From IMG/VR virus record IMGVR_UViG_3300028025_003102, positions 1-27,597 of that record: a stretch of DNA of 27,597 nt. One strand, written 5' to 3'. Both the position numbers and the translations under genes were made by a program. Numbering within the stretch: position 1 is the first letter of the stretch; each line of letters begins with the position of its first letter. The notes beneath the pieces were generated by a model that did no database searches, was not told where the DNA came from, and worked only from the letters and a program-made list of their open reading frames with translations. This document shows positions 19,766 through 27,597 of this stretch, piece by piece. The stretch comes from a virus.

Positions 19766-20074
19766 ATGACTACTCACAAGAAACATCACGCAAGTAAAAA
19801 AGACCCACGCCTAGCCCGTGCAGGCGTATCTGGGTACAACAAGCCTAAAGCAACTCCTGGAGCTAAGAAGTCACACGTAGTTGTGGCTAAAGAAGGCGAC
19901 CAGATTAAGACCATTCGCTTTGGTGAGCAGGGTGCCGAAACCGCGGGTAAGCCTAAGGCTGGAGAGTCTGCCAGAATGAAGGCTAAGCGTAAGAGCTTTA
20001 AGGCTCGTCACGGTAGGAACATCGCTAAGGGCAAGATGTCTGCAGCGTACTGGGCTGACAAGGTTAAATGGTAA
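19766..20074 (+). CDS. Basic protein, DUF6321-like
   Basis: 102 residues, strongly basic. RLARAGVSGYNKPKATPGAK, KSHVVVAKEGDQIKTIRFGE and KARHGRNIAKGKMSAAYWAD are hallmarks of a small family common in aquatic phages (I associate it with DUF6321; to be confirmed by profile search). Function is unknown. High charge and location in the head and neck region suggest DNA binding or packaging with DNA. AAGGA precedes ATG 19766. It begins an uninterrupted chain of overlapping small genes. Confidence 0.75.
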   Translation: MTTHKKHHASKKDPRLARAGVSGYNKPKATPGAKKSHVVVAKEGDQIKTIRFGEQGAETAGKPKAGESARMKAKRKSFKARHGRNIAKGKMSAAYWADKVKW

Positions 20075-20328
20075 TGACTAAGGTACGCACTAAAGATGGC
20101 GTAGGCCATGTCATTACTAAGAAAAAGTCTGATAAAGGCATTGGTAAAAAGGGCGATGTTATCGTTGACCACACCTCAAAGAAAAAAGGTAAATACGATA
20201 AAATGAACTTGACTGAAAAGTCTGGTGCTAAGACGGTTAAAGATGGTGTAAAGCACACCCGTGAATGGCACAAAAACAACCCAAAGAAGAAGGCTTCTAA
20301 TGGCGGCAAAAAAACCAACAAAAAGTAA
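20074..20328 (+). CDS. Small lysine-rich protein
   Basis: 84 residues from ATG 20074 (TAATG with the previous stop; ATG 20068 two codons earlier is an alternative). Lys dominates (KKKSDKGIGKKGDVIVDHTS, KKASNGGKKTNKK). There are several Gly-Lys and short beta-like stretches but no recognised domain. Its 3' end overlaps the next gene by 29 bases. Likely nucleic-acid-binding by charge only. Confidence 0.6.
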   Translation: MTKVRTKDGVGHVITKKKSDKGIGKKGDVIVDHTSKKKGKYDKMNLTEKSGAKTVKDGVKHTREWHKNNPKKKASNGGKKTNKK

Positions 20329-20497
20329 ATCTAAGGTTAATGAAGCAGGCAACTATACTAAGCCTGAGCTTCGTAAGTCATTGTTTAAAAAGATTAAGGC
20401 TGGCACTAAAGGTGGCGACCCAGGTGAATGGTCTGCCCGTAAAGCCCAACTTCTAGCGGCTGAATACAAGAAGGCTGGCGGAGGCTACAGGAACTAA
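20300..20497 (+). CDS. Small basic protein, 'WSARKAQ' family
   Basis: 65 residues from ATG 20300. The start at 20261 would overlap the upstream gene by 68 bases with a frame-shadow leader and is not used. KVNEAGNYTKPELRKSLFKK, IKAGTKGGDPGEWSARKAQL and YKKAGGGYRN match a small conserved protein type I know from cyanophages and other aquatic phages, with no assigned function. Two short helices and a Gly-rich end suggest a compact basic fold. TAATG with the next gene. Confidence 0.7.
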   Translation: MAAKKPTKSKSKVNEAGNYTKPELRKSLFKKIKAGTKGGDPGEWSARKAQLLAAEYKKAGGGYRN

Positions 20498-20808
20498 TGG
20501 CTAAATCAAAACCACAAAATGCTGTTAAAGGTGCGGCTAAAGCACTTGGGTATGAAACTGTGCGTGCTGGTAAAAGAATTGATAAAGCAGCAAAAGACAC
20601 AAGTAAACCTTCTGTTCTTCGTCAAGTAATTGTTGATAAAGAAGTAGAAGGACTTAAGCCAAGACATCAAGCATTGTTAAACGCTACTCAGTTTGCAAAA
20701 ACTGCTGGAGCTACTAAAGGACAGATGATTCGGGCTTACTACGGGGGATTAGTTCCTGGAGTTATTAAGGGATTAAAAGACAACATTTTGGATAAACGTA
20801 ATGGCTAA
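20497..20808 (+). CDS. Basic helical protein, unknown
   Basis: 103 residues, helix-rich (QNAVKGAAKALGYETVRAGK, then HQALLNATQFAKTAGATKGQ, IRAYYGGLVPGVIKGLKDN). It is less lysine-rich than its neighbours and has a hydrophobic C-terminal half. TAATG start. Overlaps the next gene by eight bases. No family was recognised. Confidence 0.6.
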   Translation: MAKSKPQNAVKGAAKALGYETVRAGKRIDKAAKDTSKPSVLRQVIVDKEVEGLKPRHQALLNATQFAKTAGATKGQMIRAYYGGLVPGVIKGLKDNILDKRNG

Positions 20809-21046
20809 AGCAAAGTCCCAGCATTCACTAGACAAGTGGACTAAGGAAGAGTGGGGAACCTCAGATGGTAAGCCGTCTAAGGGTAAAAAACGCTATCTTC
20901 CTAAGAAGGCTTGGGAAGACCTTACTCCTGCCGAAAAAAAGGCTACTAACAGAGCTAAGGCTAAAGGCAACAAGAAGGGTAAACAGTTTGTTGCTCAACC
21001 TAAGAAAATTGCTAAAAAGACAGCCAGACATAGAAGGAGCTCATAA
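20801..21046 (+). CDS. Small basic protein, 'RYLPKKAW' family
   Basis: 81 residues. SLDKWTKEEWGTSDGKPSKG, KKRYLPKKAWEDLTPAEKKA, TNRAKAKGNKKGKQFVAQPK and a KTARHRR end match a pattern seen in small proteins of cyanophages and large DNA viruses (SL..W....W.T..GK.S...RYLP..AW..L...EK..TN..K). Function is unknown. Charge and size suggest nucleic acid binding. TAATG with the next gene. Confidence 0.7.
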   Translation: MAKAKSQHSLDKWTKEEWGTSDGKPSKGKKRYLPKKAWEDLTPAEKKATNRAKAKGNKKGKQFVAQPKKIAKKTARHRRSS

Positions 21047-21180
21047 TGGCCCGCAAATCAGTTACTAACGAAAAGAACACTAGAGACCACATTGGTCGTG
21101 GTGGTAAGACCGTGCTTCCTAAGCACAAAGGAAAGCTACCTAAGCCTCCTAAGCACATGGGTACTCGTAAGGGTAGATAA
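21046..21180 (+). CDS. Very small basic protein
   Basis: 44 residues: MARKSVTNEKNTRDHIGRGG, then KTVLPKHKGKLPKPPKHMGT, ending RKGR. It starts by TAATG after the previous gene and ends by TAATG with the next. A GAAGGAG ribosome site lies just upstream (21033-21039). Lys/Arg/Pro/Gly-rich with no hydrophobic core, so probably unfolded unless bound to nucleic acid or protein. Confidence 0.65.
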   Translation: MARKSVTNEKNTRDHIGRGGKTVLPKHKGKLPKPPKHMGTRKGR

Positions 21181-21461
21181 TGGCAGAGACTAAAAGATTT
21201 GGCCCGTACAAGGGCTCAGCGGCCAATGGAGGCCGTCCAATCTATGTTTACAAGACTAAGGGCAAAGACGGCAAATGGCACACCACGAGCAAGAATAAGG
21301 CTCGTGCGGAGTATGAAGAGAAAAACGGCAAATTACCCCGTAATGTTGACGTAGACCATAAAAACAACAAACATGCTGATGACCGTAAGTCTAACCTTCG
21401 TCCTCTGAAGCATGGTAAGAACACCGCTAAAGAAAACAAGCGGAGAGCAGGAAAGAAGTAA
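21180..21461 (+). CDS. Small HNH-like endonuclease
   Basis: 93 residues. The C-terminal half carries an HNH signature: RNVDVDHKNNKHADDRKSNL with Asp59-His60, Asn72 (SNLRPL), then His78 and Asn81 in KHGKNTAKENKRR. The N-terminal half is a basic strand-rich segment (GGRPIYVYKTKGKDGKWHTT) that may bind DNA. HNH enzymes nick or cut DNA by a one-metal beta-beta-alpha site. It is embedded in the chain of basic genes, with TAATG on both sides, unlike a homing insertion. It may act on packaged or host DNA; whether it is active is unknown. Confidence 0.7.
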   Translation: MAETKRFGPYKGSAANGGRPIYVYKTKGKDGKWHTTSKNKARAEYEEKNGKLPRNVDVDHKNNKHADDRKSNLRPLKHGKNTAKENKRRAGKK

Positions 21462-21823
21462 TGGCAACTAAACCAAAAGCACTTCGAAAGAAGTTAAAAG
21501 GTGTTGACAAGCACTCCAGGGTAGAAAAAAAAGTTCAAGAAGCAAGTGATTTAACTGGCGGTATTTGGGGAGGCCTACCTTCTAATATGGCAACTTTTGA
21601 GCCTAAAGTTGTTACTAGACCTAAAAAAGGAAAAGTTAGTGGTAAAGGGAAAACTCACCTTGCAGCTGATGGTGGCACTACTCTAGATGGTAGAGAAACT
21701 ATTGTTAGAAGATTAAACATGCCTCAAGCTATGCACGCAGATGCAAAGTTTGAAAAGGTATCTAGAAAAGAAGAGTCTCTTTATAACCGACACTTAAATA
21801 AAACACAGTTTAGGAATCAATAA
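21461..21823 (+). CDS. Basic protein, unknown
   Basis: 120 residues. A lysine-rich N-terminus (KPKALRKKLKGVDKHSRVEK) is followed by a Gly/Trp segment (LTGGIWGGLPSNMATFEPKV), a Gly/Lys loop and a C-terminal helix region (SRKEESLYNRHLNKTQFRNQ). No family was recognised. TAATG at both ends. Confidence 0.6.
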   Translation: MATKPKALRKKLKGVDKHSRVEKKVQEASDLTGGIWGGLPSNMATFEPKVVTRPKKGKVSGKGKTHLAADGGTTLDGRETIVRRLNMPQAMHADAKFEKVSRKEESLYNRHLNKTQFRNQ

Positions 21824-21885
21824 TGAATGAATGTAAATGTGGCAACTGTGGTTGCGGAAAGAAGGAACCAAATGGCAGTAACTAA
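21823..21885 (+). CDS. Cysteine-rich microprotein
   Basis: 20 residues, MNECKCGNCGCGKKEPNGSN, starting by TAATG and ending 14 bases inside the next gene. The four cysteines form CxCxxCxC, suited to binding zinc or copper like a minimal metallothionein knuckle. It contains the GAAGGA ribosome site of the next gene, so it could also be a leader peptide. It keeps the unbroken overlap pattern of the cluster. Coding status rests on context and composition. Confidence 0.4.
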   Translation: MNECKCGNCGCGKKEPNGSN

Positions 21886-22183
21886 GAAGTGTGGCTGTGG
21901 CAAGTGTTCTGCGTGTAAGACCTCTATGAAGGGCAAGTACACAGAAAAGAAGGACAAGGTCAAGGATGCCAAGATGACTAAGGGCCTAACTGCTGCTGAA
22001 AAGCGAGAGTTTGAAAAGAAGGACAAGGCTCACGGAGCCAAAAAGAAGCCTAAGACTATGGCTGAAGACCGTAAGATTGATGCTAGAATTATCCGTGGTA
22101 TCAAGAAGCACTCTGCCCACGAAAAGCGTGAAGGCAAGGCTGGCGAGAAGCGTGAAAACGCTAAGAAGACAGGAAAGAAATAA
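21872..22183 (+). CDS. Lysine-rich protein with an N-terminal cysteine cluster
   Basis: 103 residues from ATG 21872, five bases after GAAGGA. An in-frame ATG at 21827 lies inside the microprotein gene and gives an unlikely leader. The N-terminus MAVTKKCGCGKCSACKTSMK has Cys7, 9, 12 and 15 (CxCxxCxxC), a probable metal knuckle. The rest is a Lys/Glu/Arg helix (AAEKREFEKKDKAHGAKKKP, EKREGKAGEKRENAKKTGKK). A metal knuckle plus basic helix suggests nucleic acid binding. TAATG with the next gene. Confidence 0.65.
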   Translation: MAVTKKCGCGKCSACKTSMKGKYTEKKDKVKDAKMTKGLTAAEKREFEKKDKAHGAKKKPKTMAEDRKIDARIIRGIKKHSAHEKREGKAGEKRENAKKTGKK

Positions 22184-22557
22184 TGGCTGCTAAACCTCCT
22201 ATCACACCTATGACTAGGAATAAAAAAGTCTACAACCCAGGAAAAGACGTTAAGGGTAAGGGTGCCAAAAAAGCTGTTAAAAAAGCGTATAAAACAATTG
22301 CAAAAACTGACGTTGACGTAGCTAGGAAAGAAAAGGTAGGAAGCCCTAAGTTTAATGCTGCAGAAAAGAAGGTTGACAAGGCTGAGGCAACCTTACATAA
22401 GTACAAAACTCCTGGCAGGGTTTATGGTAAAAAGATGGACAAAGCAGTAGCTGACCTACAAAAGGCTAGGGGCAAGAGAGTAAAGCCTAGGGGAATTACT
22501 GGACCTATACCAAGAGTTAACAGGAACAAGAGCAGGCGACTTCCTCCTGGTATCTAA
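22183..22557 (+). CDS. Basic protein ending the cluster
   Basis: 124 residues, Lys/Arg/Pro/Gly-rich (TRNKKVYNPGKDVKGKGAKK, then FNAAEKKVDKAEATLHKYKT, end RNKSRRLPPGI). The middle is a likely helix of alternating Lys, Ala and Asp. No recognised family. It is last in the chain and is followed 15 bases later by an intrinsic terminator. Confidence 0.6.
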   Translation: MAAKPPITPMTRNKKVYNPGKDVKGKGAKKAVKKAYKTIAKTDVDVARKEKVGSPKFNAAEKKVDKAEATLHKYKTPGRVYGKKMDKAVADLQKARGKRVKPRGITGPIPRVNRNKSRRLPPGI

Positions 22558-24289: not shown

Positions 24290-25876
24290 ATGACTGTGTA
24301 TAACCACCCTGGAGTTTATATTAATGAACTCCCATTAGCGGTAACCACCAATGCATTCGGCTATTCAGCTGTTGCTTCCGGTGCTATCGTGGGCCAATTC
24401 TCAAAGGGCCCAACCACAATTACCCGAGTTACTTCCTACTCTCAGTTTGAAGATAAATTTGGTAGCCTAAATGGTAGCTTCCCTGCTACCTACAGCGTAA
24501 AGATGTTCTTCAACAATGGTGGAACAGACCTTTACGTTCGTCGTGTAGTTGCAGCAAACGCCCCTCAGGCAGCTGTTGATATTTACGACACTGCGTCAAC
24601 CCCTGTAAAAGTTGCTGCTATTCGTGCCAAGTACAAGGGTAATGACAGTATCAAGCTACGCGTTAAAATAGATAACAAAGTTACTATTAATGCAAAAGAC
24701 TACTACGATTTCCACGTGTACTTTGATGATGGCGACAGCGACTACGTTGGTGGCACATTCACTACAAGTAGAGCGTCTCTAAACACAGAAATTGAGCGTT
24801 TTAACGCAGTTAGCTTTGACCAGCCAGACTCTAGCAGCTACATTAAGACTGTACTTCAGTTGTCTTCAAATCAAGTTGAAGTCAATGGTGCTGTAACAGT
24901 TCCTACCGCAGCTGTTAACTCTGCTTACTACCCGCTAACAGGAACAGAAAGCACTACAGCACTTACTAAGTTTGACTACACTGGTGACTTGGCTAGTACC
25001 CCACTAGGTACTGTTGCGTCATACTCTGTATTTAACGATTACAATGTTGTAGACTGCCCTCTTGTATTCTTTGCTCCGGACGTAACAAAGTTCTTGAGTT
25101 CTTCAGATTCTCAGGCTGTGTTCAATGCTTTGATTGCATGGTCTGAAGTAAACACAAGTCGCTTTGTTGTCCTTGACACTCCAGTAGACTTGAGCGTTAC
25201 TTCTGCTGGAACATTTTCTAGCGGTTTAACTATTTCAAGCCGTGCAGCAGTGTACTACCCACACATCTTCATCAAGGACACCTCAATTAGCGGTAGCCCA
25301 CTTCGTAAGATTGGCCCAGCTGGTGCTGTTGCAGGTCTGTACTTGTTTAATGACCGTAAAGCCGGCCCTTACAAGACTCCTGCTGGTATTGGAGCTAAGA
25401 TTCAAGACGCTCTTGCTATTGAAAAATTGCTTACAAATGATGACCTAGACGCTCTAAACAACTCTACTTACCCATTGAACGCTATTCGTAACGTTCCTGG
25501 TGCAGGAATTGTTGTAATGGGTGGACGTACTCTAAAGCAGGATGGAACAGCAAACCGCTACATTGCGATGCGCCGTTCTCTAACCTACATCGAAAAGAGT
25601 TTGTCAGACCTTACTCAGTTTGCTGTATTTGAAAGCAACAGTGAAATTTTGTGGTCTCGTATCACAACTACTCTGTCTGCATTCTTGAACACATACCGCA
25701 ACCAGGGCGGTCTTCGTGGTGCAACACCACAGGACGCTTTCTTTGTAACTTGTGACGCAACTAACAACTCATCTCAGTCAATTGCTAACGGAATTGTTAA
25801 CGTTGATGTTGGTGTTGCTCTTGAGTACCCAGGTGAGTTTGTAATCATCAACCTAAGCCAAATCGTCGGCCAGTAA
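24290..25876 (+). CDS. Contractile tail sheath protein
   Basis: 528 residues. The N-terminus YNHPGVYINELPLAVTTNAF and IVGQFSKGPTTITRVTSYSQ, with FEDKFGS and FFNNGGTDLYVRRVV, is diagnostic of sheath proteins. The C-terminal core includes PAGIGAKIQDALAIEKLLTN, LNAIRNVPGAGIVVMGGRTL, RRSLTYIEKSLSDLTQFAVF and the end EYPGEFVIINLSQIVG. It polymerises around the tube and contracts at infection, so the virion is a myovirus. A strong AAGGAG precedes the ATG. Confidence 0.96.
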   Translation: MTVYNHPGVYINELPLAVTTNAFGYSAVASGAIVGQFSKGPTTITRVTSYSQFEDKFGSLNGSFPATYSVKMFFNNGGTDLYVRRVVAANAPQAAVDIYDTASTPVKVAAIRAKYKGNDSIKLRVKIDNKVTINAKDYYDFHVYFDDGDSDYVGGTFTTSRASLNTEIERFNAVSFDQPDSSSYIKTVLQLSSNQVEVNGAVTVPTAAVNSAYYPLTGTESTTALTKFDYTGDLASTPLGTVASYSVFNDYNVVDCPLVFFAPDVTKFLSSSDSQAVFNALIAWSEVNTSRFVVLDTPVDLSVTSAGTFSSGLTISSRAAVYYPHIFIKDTSISGSPLRKIGPAGAVAGLYLFNDRKAGPYKTPAGIGAKIQDALAIEKLLTNDDLDALNNSTYPLNAIRNVPGAGIVVMGGRTLKQDGTANRYIAMRRSLTYIEKSLSDLTQFAVFESNSEILWSRITTTLSAFLNTYRNQGGLRGATPQDAFFVTCDATNNSSQSIANGIVNVDVGVALEYPGEFVIINLSQIVGQ

Positions 25877-25893: not shown

Positions 25894-26523
25894 ATGGCTA
25901 CAGTAATAAACAACCGTTCCACACTTGAGACGGACCCAATCAGAAACTTTAGGTTTCTGGTTACCTTCAAGCCGCTAAACTCTGGCGATGCTACCTGGCT
26001 TCCAGGTGGTGCACAGAAAGTAACCGTTGGATTCACATCGGTATCGGGACTGGCAGTAACCACTGACTCAATCCCTTACCGTGAAGGTGGGTACAACACC
26101 ACTGTTCACCAGATTCCTGGACAGACAACCTTTGCCCCTATCTCACTACAGCGTGGTGTCGTTCTCGGCACTAAGCAGCACTGGGACTGGATGCGTCAGT
26201 TGTTTGCAACAGTACAGGGTGGCACAAACCGCGCAAACCAGGCAACTAACTTCCGTTGCGACGTTGAAATTGCAGTGCTATCGCACCCAATCGCTGGTTC
26301 AGGTGGAGGAAACACCGAGCTAACTGGTGCTAACTACACTGACCACGTCTCAATGCGTTTCCAGGTTTACAACGCTTGGCCAACCAACGTTGCATACTCT
26401 GACCTAAACGCAGGTGACAACGCTATCTTCGTAGAGCAGATGACTCTAGTACACGAAGGTTTCGACGTTAACTGGGCAACAGACCTAACAGCTAACGGTT
26501 CAGCAAAGCCATTTGCTAACTAA
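25894..26523 (+). CDS. Tail tube protein, T4 gp19-like
   Basis: 209 residues. DPIRNFRFLVTFKPL, VGFTSVSGLAVTTDSIPYRE, GGYNTTVHQIPGQTTFAPIS, LQRGVVLGTKQHWDWMRQL and the C-terminal VEQMTLVHEGFDVNW are typical of gp19/Hcp-like tube proteins that stack as hexamers inside the sheath. TAAGGAG lies before ATG 25894. Codon use is as biased as in the capsid gene. The sheath-tube pair is conserved in all contractile tails. Confidence 0.95.
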   Translation: MATVINNRSTLETDPIRNFRFLVTFKPLNSGDATWLPGGAQKVTVGFTSVSGLAVTTDSIPYREGGYNTTVHQIPGQTTFAPISLQRGVVLGTKQHWDWMRQLFATVQGGTNRANQATNFRCDVEIAVLSHPIAGSGGGNTELTGANYTDHVSMRFQVYNAWPTNVAYSDLNAGDNAIFVEQMTLVHEGFDVNWATDLTANGSAKPFAN

Positions 26524-26549: not shown

Positions 26550-27362
26550 GTGAATGAAAAAATAACAGCCGCTAACCCAGATTTGCTAAATCAACTTGCT
26601 AATCAGGCAATGGCGGAAGGTAAACAACAAGAAGTAGTCTTTTCGGAGATTACCTACCCATCAGAATCTTTGGTGCTCCTTCCTGGCGGACATGTAAATT
26701 CCGCTAGGGAGGTCATCAAGACTGCTGAGGTTCGTGAACTAACTGGAAAAGACGAAGAGTATATGGGTAAAGCACCTACTCTAGCTAAGGCTTTTAATGG
26801 CCTTTTAGAGAGAGCAGTTGTATCTTTGGGTGATGAACCAATTACCGCAGAGATTGTAGACCAGCTTCTTATTGGAGATAGGGACGCTTTACTTCTAGGT
26901 ATTTACAAAGTCACATTTGGTAATATAGCTGAGCTTCAAGGATTCTGTAATAGATGTGATTCTTATCAGGATGTAGAAATCGATGTAGATGAAGACATCA
27001 AGGTAGTCACTCTAAAGAATCCTATTGATGACCGTAGCTTTACTGTTCAGGGTAAAAACCACAAGTACCTTGTGGCATTGCCTACAGGAACTACACAAAA
27101 AACTTTGTTGAATAATTCCGATAAAACTGTTCCTGAGTTAACCACTCTACTTCTAGAACAAACAGTTCTTGAAATAGATGGTAATCCAGTTCTCAGCAAA
27201 ATTCAGGCACAAAACATTGGTCTAGCTGACCGCCGTAAAATTGGTGAAGAACTTGCCAAGCGTGCGCCTGGACCAAAGTTTGACAATATTGAAGTAGACT
27301 GCCCGGACTGTGAAGGAAAGGTAGTGGTCCCAATTAGTATTGGGGCTTTATTTCGCTTCTAA
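26550..27362 (+). CDS. T4 gp26/gp51-like tail assembly or baseplate factor
   Basis: 270 residues from GTG 26550 with AGGAG eight bases upstream. KTAEVRELTGKDEEYMGKAP, FNGLLERAVVSLGDEPITAE and VDQLLIGDRDALLLGIYKVT FG form the core of the T4_baseplate (gp26/51) family. Two CxxC pairs, Cys133/136 (FCNRCDSY) and Cys251/254 (CPDCEG), probably bind one zinc. T4 gp51 and gp26 aid baseplate hub assembly; in other myophages this gene occupies the tail-assembly-chaperone position between tube and tape measure, as here. The 3' end overlaps a +1-frame ORF with a GGGG slip site at 27342-27345. Confidence 0.8.
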   Translation: MNEKITAANPDLLNQLANQAMAEGKQQEVVFSEITYPSESLVLLPGGHVNSAREVIKTAEVRELTGKDEEYMGKAPTLAKAFNGLLERAVVSLGDEPITAEIVDQLLIGDRDALLLGIYKVTFGNIAELQGFCNRCDSYQDVEIDVDEDIKVVTLKNPIDDRSFTVQGKNHKYLVALPTGTTQKTLLNNSDKTVPELTTLLLEQTVLEIDGNPVLSKIQAQNIGLADRRKIGEELAKRAPGPKFDNIEVDCPDCEGKVVVPISIGALFRF

Positions 27363-27516
27363 AGTTTCTGGTTACAGAACACTACTAGAAGAATGGGCCC
27401 TTATATCTATCTCGTTCACTGGTTGGACATTAGACGAGATAAAAGGAATAAGCCCTAGAGAAAGAACAAACTGGTTAGAAATGGCCAGCTTTTTCGGAAA
27501 AGTAAACAGAAAGTAA
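27346..27516 (+). CDS. Overlapping +1-frame tail assembly ORF (frameshift partner)
   Basis: In the +1 frame an open stretch runs from after TAG 27322-27324 to TAA 27514-27516. From CTT 27346 it encodes 56 residues: LYFASKVSGYRTLLEEWALI, then SFTGWTLDEIKGISPRERTN and WLEMASFFGKVNRK. The W.L.EI..ISPRER..WLEM helices resemble small proteins encoded after gp26-like genes. The only in-frame start is TTG 27340, with purine-rich sequence too far upstream. A +1 slip on GGGG (27342-27345) would give a 321-residue fusion. Separate TTG initiation is the alternative. Confidence 0.65.
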   Translation, partial: LYFASKVSGYRTLLEEWALISISFTGWTLDEIKGISPRERTNWLEMASFFGKVNRK

Positions 27517-27520
27517 TTCC

Positions 27521-27597
27521 ATGGCAGACAAAGACCTTACCGGCAAAGACTTAGCCAAAAATCTCAGTTCCTCCAAGAGAGATGCTGCAGCTGTAGC
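27521..27597 (+). CDS. Start of the next tail gene (partial), possibly tape measure
   Basis: ATG 27521 lies four bases after the previous stop and the frame is open to the window edge: 25 residues, MADKDLTGKDLAKNLSSSKR then DAAAVA. The hydrophilic start, Ala-rich helix and position after the tube and chaperone genes fit a tape measure protein, but too little is visible to prove it. Confidence 0.55.
   Translation, partial: MADKDLTGKDLAKNLSSSKRDAAAV

What the first reader, a model, noticed from the sequence alone, without database searches (positions are those of the whole stretch)
27322..27516. Probable programmed +1 frameshift between tail tube and tape measure
The gp26/51-like gene ends at 27362, but the +1 frame is open from 27325 to 27516 with a conserved-looking helical product and no good start codon. 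GGG 27342-27344 can re-pair fully after a +1 slip to GGG 27343-27345, then CTT follows. Tail-assembly genes at this position commonly use frameshifts (lambda G/GT; Mu-like -2), and +1 is the rarer kind. A gp26-type fusion of this form would be notable.
Basis: partly seen in the sequence, partly recalled or inferred. Interest (0 to 1): 0.7.

Follow-up and report, generated by a model that had tools for sequence, protein, structure and literature searches.

The report
Forward ribosome slip makes tail chaperone
In a large, mostly environmental family of contractile-tailed phages, ribosomes appear to be programmed to slip forward one base at a conserved UUU-C near the end of a tail-assembly gene, making a second, longer chaperone that existing phage annotations miss.

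Summary
The gp26-like gene (26550-27362) is followed by an overlapping +1-frame ORF (27325-27516) just before the putative tape-measure start at 27521. Relatives show that it is coding: the +1 ORF is present in all 89 loci first collected, and substitutions switch from 0-frame to +1-frame wobble positions at one point.

The proposed slip site is wrong. GGGG occurs in 8 of 64 non-redundant loci. Six bases downstream of the GGG codon's end, 0-frame TTT followed by C (27351-27354) is invariant in 64/64. It has the lowest wobble variability of 250 codon columns, and is TTT even where every other Phe codon is TTC. UUU_CGN is the +1 shift site of influenza PA-X, and UUU_Y is shift-prone in bacteria. 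In 90 further loci, 71 keep UUU_C, 17 carry another +1-prone site (CUU_Y or UUU_U-stop) and two lack the extension.

Best explanation: P-site tRNA-Phe slips UUU to UUC, giving short (270 aa) and long (321 aa) tail-assembly chaperones, as in lambda gpG/gpGT but in the +1 direction. More distant family members use -1 at U_UUU_UUC; T4 has two paralogous genes, gp26 and gp51. The slip and the function are inferred, not measured.

The parts
26550..27362 (+). 0-frame gene: short form of the putative tail-assembly chaperone, 270 aa, GTG start, TAA stop
   Evidence: PF12322 T4_baseplate E=8e-8; phrog_150 baseplate hub E=3e-6; AlphaFold2 model pLDDT 86; top PDB matches are the HK97 tail assembly chaperone 2ob9, prob 0.96 but E=0.16
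27351..27354 (+). Shift site TTT_C: P-site UUU can re-pair as UUC after a +1 slip
   Evidence: TTT then C in 64 of 64 non-redundant loci; lowest third-base entropy of 250 codon columns; frame of selection switches here
27354..27356 (+). 0-frame A-site codon at the slip, CGC
   Evidence: CGN 45, CAR 18, CCG 1 among 64 loci; CGN is preferred in eukaryotic-virus UUU_C sites (PMC3498833)
27355..27516 (+). +1-frame extension read after the slip (53 codons and TAA); with the first 268 residues it makes the 321-aa long form
   Evidence: Homologous extension in all 89 loci; alignment A4; three-helix AlphaFold2 model, pLDDT 86; whole +1 open frame runs 27325-27516
27342..27345 (+).
   Evidence: 8 of 64 loci
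27521..27597 (+). Start of the next gene, putative tape measure, cut by the contig end
   Evidence: ATG 4 nt after the +1 stop; a long ORF starts a median of 2 nt from the +1 stop in 63 loci; named by position, as annotated in SP-15 and Flavobacterium phage immuto
25894..26523 (+). Tail tube gene upstream (context)
   Evidence: PF06841 Phage_T4_gp19 E=3e-27
24290..25876 (+). Tail sheath gene upstream (context)
   Evidence: PF17482 E=2e-8; phrog_23 E=5e-44

Best explanation
The gene encodes a phage tail-assembly chaperone in two forms. Most ribosomes stop at TAA 27360 and make the 270-residue short form. A minority slip forward one base at UUU_C (27351-27354): P-site tRNA-Phe leaves the weaker UUU pairing for UUC while the CGN/CAR codon waits in the A site. 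They read on in the +1 frame and make a 321-residue long form (...ISIGALF-ASKVSGYR...) with a small helical C-terminal domain. By analogy with lambda gpG/gpGT, the short form would coat the tape-measure protein and the rarer long form would recruit tube subunits. Shown by comparative sequence: the +1 ORF is coding, it has no conserved start codon, the TTT_C site is conserved, and the frame of selection changes there. Inferred: that the slip is ribosomal and at the P site, that it is a minority event, its efficiency, and the chaperone function.
For: Homologous +1 extension in 89/89 loci, then 88/90 further loci. Substitution periodicity switches frame at the site. TTT_C in 64/64 non-redundant loci; in the five GC-richest loci all 28 other Phe codons are TTC. 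Third base least variable of 250 codon columns. TTT_C depleted elsewhere in the gene, 8 against 43.7 expected, more than in other genes. Where TTT_C is lost, the +1-prone CTT_Y (13 loci) or TTT-stop (4 loci) replaces it. No ATG/GTG/TTG at all in 15 of 64 loci. UUU_Y is +1-prone in bacteria (PMC5009743) and UUU_CGU is proven +1 in influenza (PMC3498833). Position between tube and tape measure and PF12322 membership; HK97 chaperone is the top PDB fold match.
Against: No protein or ribosome-profiling data. No conserved downstream RNA structure above control windows and no close Shine-Dalgarno stimulator was found, so efficiency may be low or depend on something unseen. The UUU_C site was not invariant in the second, more divergent sample. 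The fold match to HK97 gp13 has E=0.16. The match of the extension to T4 gp51's C-terminus is not significant.
Confidence: 0.88

Rival explanations
1. +1 slip at GGGG 27342-27345.
For: Perfect re-pairing GGG to GGG is possible in this window.
Against: GGGG in only 8 of 64 loci. In 28 loci a +1-frame stop just upstream leaves only the last few codons for the shift. 0-frame third positions remain the variable ones up to position -1.
Confidence: 0.02
2. The +1 ORF is a separate gene started internally by translational coupling to the 0-frame stop.
For: GiJojo, BRock and LuckySocke annotate a separate hypothetical gene there; TTG 27340 exists in this window.
Against: 15 of 64 loci have no ATG/GTG/TTG between -60 and the conserved Trp; the rest have no common position, and only 9 candidates have an SD-like 4-mer. 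It would not explain invariant TTT_C.
Confidence: 0.04
3. -2 slip into the same frame, as in phage Mu.
For: A -2 shift reaches the same frame, and Mu uses it for gpGT (PMC3498833).
Against: At the conserved site a -2 move puts tRNA-Phe on TGT, TAT or TCT according to the locus, with mismatches; the invariant C after TTT would have no role.
Confidence: 0.03
4. Sequencing or assembly error, or polymerase slippage, splits one gene.
For: A G run in this window prompted the concern.
Against: The same layout in about 175 loci from many samples, with selection on the +1 frame and no long homopolymer at the site.
Confidence: 0.01

Closest known systems
Lambda gpG/gpGT and the tail-assembly-chaperone frameshift of long-tailed phages (Xu, Hendrix and Duda 2004, as cited in PMC5009743)
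   Same: A gene between tail tube and tape measure yields a short and a frameshifted long product; [quoted passage not shown]
   Different: Lambda-type shifts are -1 on tandem slippery sites (Mu: -2); here the shift is +1 on a single P-site codon, and the protein belongs to the T4 gp26/gp51 Pfam family.
T4 gp26 and gp51 (PF12322 T4_baseplate); T4-like TACs, Vladimirov et al. 2022, PMID 34826709 (title seen only)
   Same: Both T4 proteins are PF12322 members, as is the window protein; gp26 ends where the short form ends, gp51 has a C-terminal addition.
   Different: T4 uses two paralogous genes on opposite strands; here one gene plus a frameshift. Homology of the addition to the extension is not significant.
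PF12322 genes of jumbo phages (121Q, GAP32, PA5oct, Atu_ph07, Phosso)
   Same: An overlapping out-of-frame extension follows the gene at the corresponding Phe position.
   Different: The extension lies in the -1 frame with a U_UUU_UUC heptamer.
Influenza A PA-X UUU_CGU +1 frameshift (PMC3498833) and plant amalgavirus UUU_CGN (PMC5052127)
   Same: Same P-site slip UUU to UUC and mostly a CGN codon in the A site.
   Different: Eukaryotic RNA viruses, unrelated proteins, UCC rather than UUG/UUA/CUG before the site in influenza.
Bacterial UUU_Y +1 sites such as Yersinia YopN-TyeA (PMC5009743)
   Same: Same class of shift-prone tetranucleotide in bacteria.
   Different: Not a phage gene.
+1 frameshifts in phage tail genes: SPP1 gp17.1*, Listeria phage Tsh, HSTV-2 (PMC6316719, PMC3498833, PMC8211752)
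   Same: +1 direction in a phage tail gene.
   Different: SPP1 gp17.1* uses CCC_UAA in the tube protein, and its chaperone gene has a putative -1 site. The HSTV-2 site could not be read here.

Membership tests
Phage tail-assembly chaperone (gpG/gpGT type) | Gene lies between tail tube and tape measure | tested here: met
   Tube (PF06841) immediately upstream; next gene starts at 27521, annotated as tape measure in SP-15 and Flavobacterium phage relatives; the window itself ends before the tape measure can be recognised by sequence
Phage tail-assembly chaperone (gpG/gpGT type) | Short product plus a frameshifted long product sharing its N-terminus | tested here: met
   Met at the comparative-sequence level only: +1 extension conserved and under selection; the protein itself was not observed
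Phage tail-assembly chaperone (gpG/gpGT type) | -1 shift on an X_XXY_YYZ heptamer | tested here: not met
   The extension is in the +1 frame in all 89 loci; it is -1 only in distant jumbo-phage relatives
Phage tail-assembly chaperone (gpG/gpGT type) | Fold of known chaperones (HK97 gp13) | tested here: inconclusive
   2ob9 chains A and B are the two best PDB matches, prob 0.96, but E=0.16 and 0.26
Phage tail-assembly chaperone (gpG/gpGT type) | Binds tape measure and tube; absent from mature virion; set ratio of forms | not testable with these tools
   Needs biochemistry
PF12322 T4_baseplate (T4 gp26/gp51) | Match above Pfam's gathering score | tested here: met
   32.7 bits against a cut-off of 24.5; BFVD matches are T4-like baseplate hub assembly proteins, E down to 1e-19
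UUU_C class of +1 programmed frameshift | UUU codon followed by C at the frame switch, conserved beyond coding need | tested here: met
   64/64 non-redundant loci, least variable wobble position
UUU_C class of +1 programmed frameshift | CGN in the A site | tested here: inconclusive
   CGN in 45/64, CAR in 18/64, CCG in 1
UUU_C class of +1 programmed frameshift | Junction peptide or reporter shows a +1 slip at UUU_C | not testable with these tools
   Needs mass spectrometry or a reporter

The most novel reading that the evidence does not exclude
The PF12322 chaperone family carries one decoding hinge at a fixed Phe position that has kept a two-product output while changing mechanism: +1 at UUU_C, +1 at CUU_Y, +1 at UUU_U-stop, -1 at U_UUU_UUC, and, in T4, replacement by two paralogous genes (gp26 short, gp51 long). 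It would be a large natural set of interconverting programmed frameshifts and a well-populated class of DNA phages using the influenza PA-X type UUU_C site.
Probability: 0.6. Interest if true: 0.68.

Novelty: new variant of a known kind. Interest (0 to 1): 0.57.

Why it matters
The tail-chaperone frameshifts found in the papers read here are nearly all -1, and +1 sites are hard to recognise; the predictor PRFect searches only runs of three or four identical bases for +1 shifts. Here is a +1 site with about 175 natural variants, including Streptomyces phages that can be grown, where the second product is unannotated or listed as a separate hypothetical protein. It gives a testable rule (TTT followed by C just before the stop of this family's gene), extends the UUU_C +1 class to DNA phages, and suggests why T4 has two related genes, gp26 and gp51.

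Tried and rejected
GGGG slip site: rejected, not conserved. Independent start codon for the +1 ORF: rejected. -2 slip: rejected on re-pairing. Slip at the stop codon (TTC_TAA): rejected, because the codon before the stop varies and mostly cannot re-pair. Downstream RNA structure as stimulator: no clear excess over control windows (mean z -0.87 against -0.55 for 60 nt). Upstream Shine-Dalgarno-type stimulator: a wobble-conserved RAG-GTN lies about 30 nt upstream, too far to act as the RF2 SD does; left unexplained. Homology of the extension to the gp51 C-terminus: aligned at the expected motif but not significant; the full-length profile comparison aligned only a Cys-rich stretch. The whole fusion could not be modelled because the structure tool does not accept this four-letter decoding step; the two halves were modelled separately. 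Fold search of the extension gave no significant match. A per-locus count of all re-pairing sites failed when its script stopped early and was not repeated. The T4 chaperone paper (PMID 34826709) was seen only as a citation and the HSTV-2 genome paper is not held, so an earlier mention of a +1 site in this family cannot be excluded.

Full report
What is there. The window is a 27,597-base IMG/VR virus contig. Its right end holds a contractile-tail module: sheath 24290-25876, tube 25894-26523, a T4 gp26/gp51-type gene 26550-27362 (PF12322, E=8e-8) and the first 77 bases of the next gene, the tape measure by position.

Is the +1 frame coding? Ten relatives were found with the protein as query, six Streptomyces phage records by tblastn, and 80 viral contigs plus 3 bacterial genome contigs with a profile. 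In all 89 loci whose junction could be read (window included) a +1 ORF continues past the 0-frame stop and encodes a homologous extension centred on G-W-[ST]-L-x-E-[IL]-K-x-[LM]-[ST]-x-R-E-R-x-x-W. Among 78 close pairs, substitutions fall at 0-frame codon positions 1/2/3 as 126/82/505 in the 90 nt upstream of 27351. From nine to 119 nt downstream they fall at +1-frame positions 1/2/3 as 448/190/818. The change is sharp: per-column entropies keep 0-frame periodicity up to position -1 and follow the +1 frame after the site.

Where is the shift? GGGG is present near the site in only 8 of 64 non-redundant loci. TTT_C, a few bases further on, is present in 64 of 64. In a codon alignment of the whole gene the third base of this TTT is the least variable of 250 scored columns, entropy zero. 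In the five GC-richest loci all 28 other Phe codons in the gene are TTC, while this one is TTT. The next codon is CGN (45), CAR (18) or CCG (1), so its first base C is kept while the amino acid is not. A caveat: if Phe were required in both frames, the third T could follow from that alone; the invariant C, and the replacement sites described below, are what point to slippage. TTT_C is under-represented elsewhere in this gene, 8 seen against 43.7 expected; in other genes of these phages avoidance is weaker, 99 against 209. Initiation codons are not conserved: 15 of 64 loci have none, and only 9 candidates have an SD-like sequence.

Further sample. Two more scans with divergent queries gave 90 new junctions. 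Of these 88 have the +1 extension; the two exceptions end elsewhere. Of the 88, 71 carry TTT_C. Thirteen carry CTT_Y instead (CUU is the P-site codon of the RF2 +1 site, PMC5009743) and four carry TTT directly before the stop codon (UUU_U). So TTT_C is not absolutely invariant in the wider family; where it is lost, another +1-prone P-site codon ending in UU takes its place.

Wider family. In more distant phages, +1 extensions with TTT_C occur in Flavobacterium phage immuto, Streptococcus phage GXN1, Bacillus phage SP-15 and a 484-kb uncultured phage; UUU_U occurs in Microcystis phage Mel-JY01 and Listeria phage LIS04. In Atu_ph07, Phosso, Vibrio 2.275, PA5oct, GAP32, 121Q and a 595-kb uncultured phage the extension is in the -1 frame, with U_UUU_UUC at the corresponding place. 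In T4 both gp26 and gp51 are PF12322 members. gp26 ends at the position of the short form, and gp51 has a C-terminal addition whose local alignment to the extension is at the expected motif but is not significant. Inference: T4 encodes by two genes what these phages encode by frameshifting.

Mechanism. UUU_Ynn is noted as especially +1-prone in bacteria and as the apparent site for Yersinia YopN-TyeA (PMC5009743). Protein analysis showed +1 slippage at UUU_CGU for influenza PA-X, explained by tRNA-Phe preferring UUC to UUU, and a broader UUU_C class was predicted there (PMC3498833). The same reasoning fits here. No downstream structure clearly exceeds control windows. The slip efficiency is unknown.

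Function. The gene order, the two-product layout, the PF12322 match and the fold point to a tail-assembly chaperone. In BFVD the 0-frame model matches T4-like baseplate hub assembly proteins. In the PDB the HK97 tail assembly chaperone ranks first and second of all chains, but with E=0.16 and 0.26. The extension is predicted as a three-helix domain. The roles of short and long forms are taken from lambda by analogy and are not shown.

Novelty. Annotated relatives list the extension as a separate hypothetical gene or not at all. The literature search found tail-chaperone frameshifts of -1 type, a likely +1 case in haloarchaeal HSTV-2, and +1 sites in structural tail proteins of SPP1 and Listeria phages, but no report of UUU_C in this family. 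Two key papers were not available. I therefore call it a new variant of a known kind.

Noticed in passing
27318-27323 (codons 257-258 of the gene at 26550): Wobble-conserved RAG-GTN about 30 nt upstream of the shift site: third base G in 63 of 64 loci, the second least variable wobble position in the gene. Purpose unknown.
   Followed up: partly
26706-26717 (codons 53-56): Wobble-conserved, SD-like GGG-GAG-GTN-NNC inside the gene with no start codon after it (AGG GAG GTC ATC in the window); third base G in 62/64 and 57/60 loci. Purpose unknown.
   Followed up: partly
27516-27521: The next long ORF starts a median of 2 nt from the stop of the +1 extension in 63 loci, often overlapping it, so its translation may be coupled to the frameshifted ribosomes.
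   Followed up: partly
all genes of the window and related loci: TTT followed by C in frame is under-represented about two-fold in other genes of these phages (99 seen, 209 expected), as if the shift-prone tetranucleotide is generally avoided.
   Followed up: partly
L096 (Streptomyces diastatochromogenes), L097 (Terracoccus), L098 (Proteobacteria MAG): Bacterial genome contigs carry the same gene, +1 extension and TTT_C; whether these are prophages, contractile injection systems or contaminating phage contigs was not checked.
   Followed up: no
L270 and L279: Two relatives without the extension; their 0-frame ORFs end at an atypical place, perhaps truncated or diverged genes.
   Followed up: no
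19766-22557: A run of small, very lysine-rich ORFs of unknown function between the virion modules.
   Followed up: no
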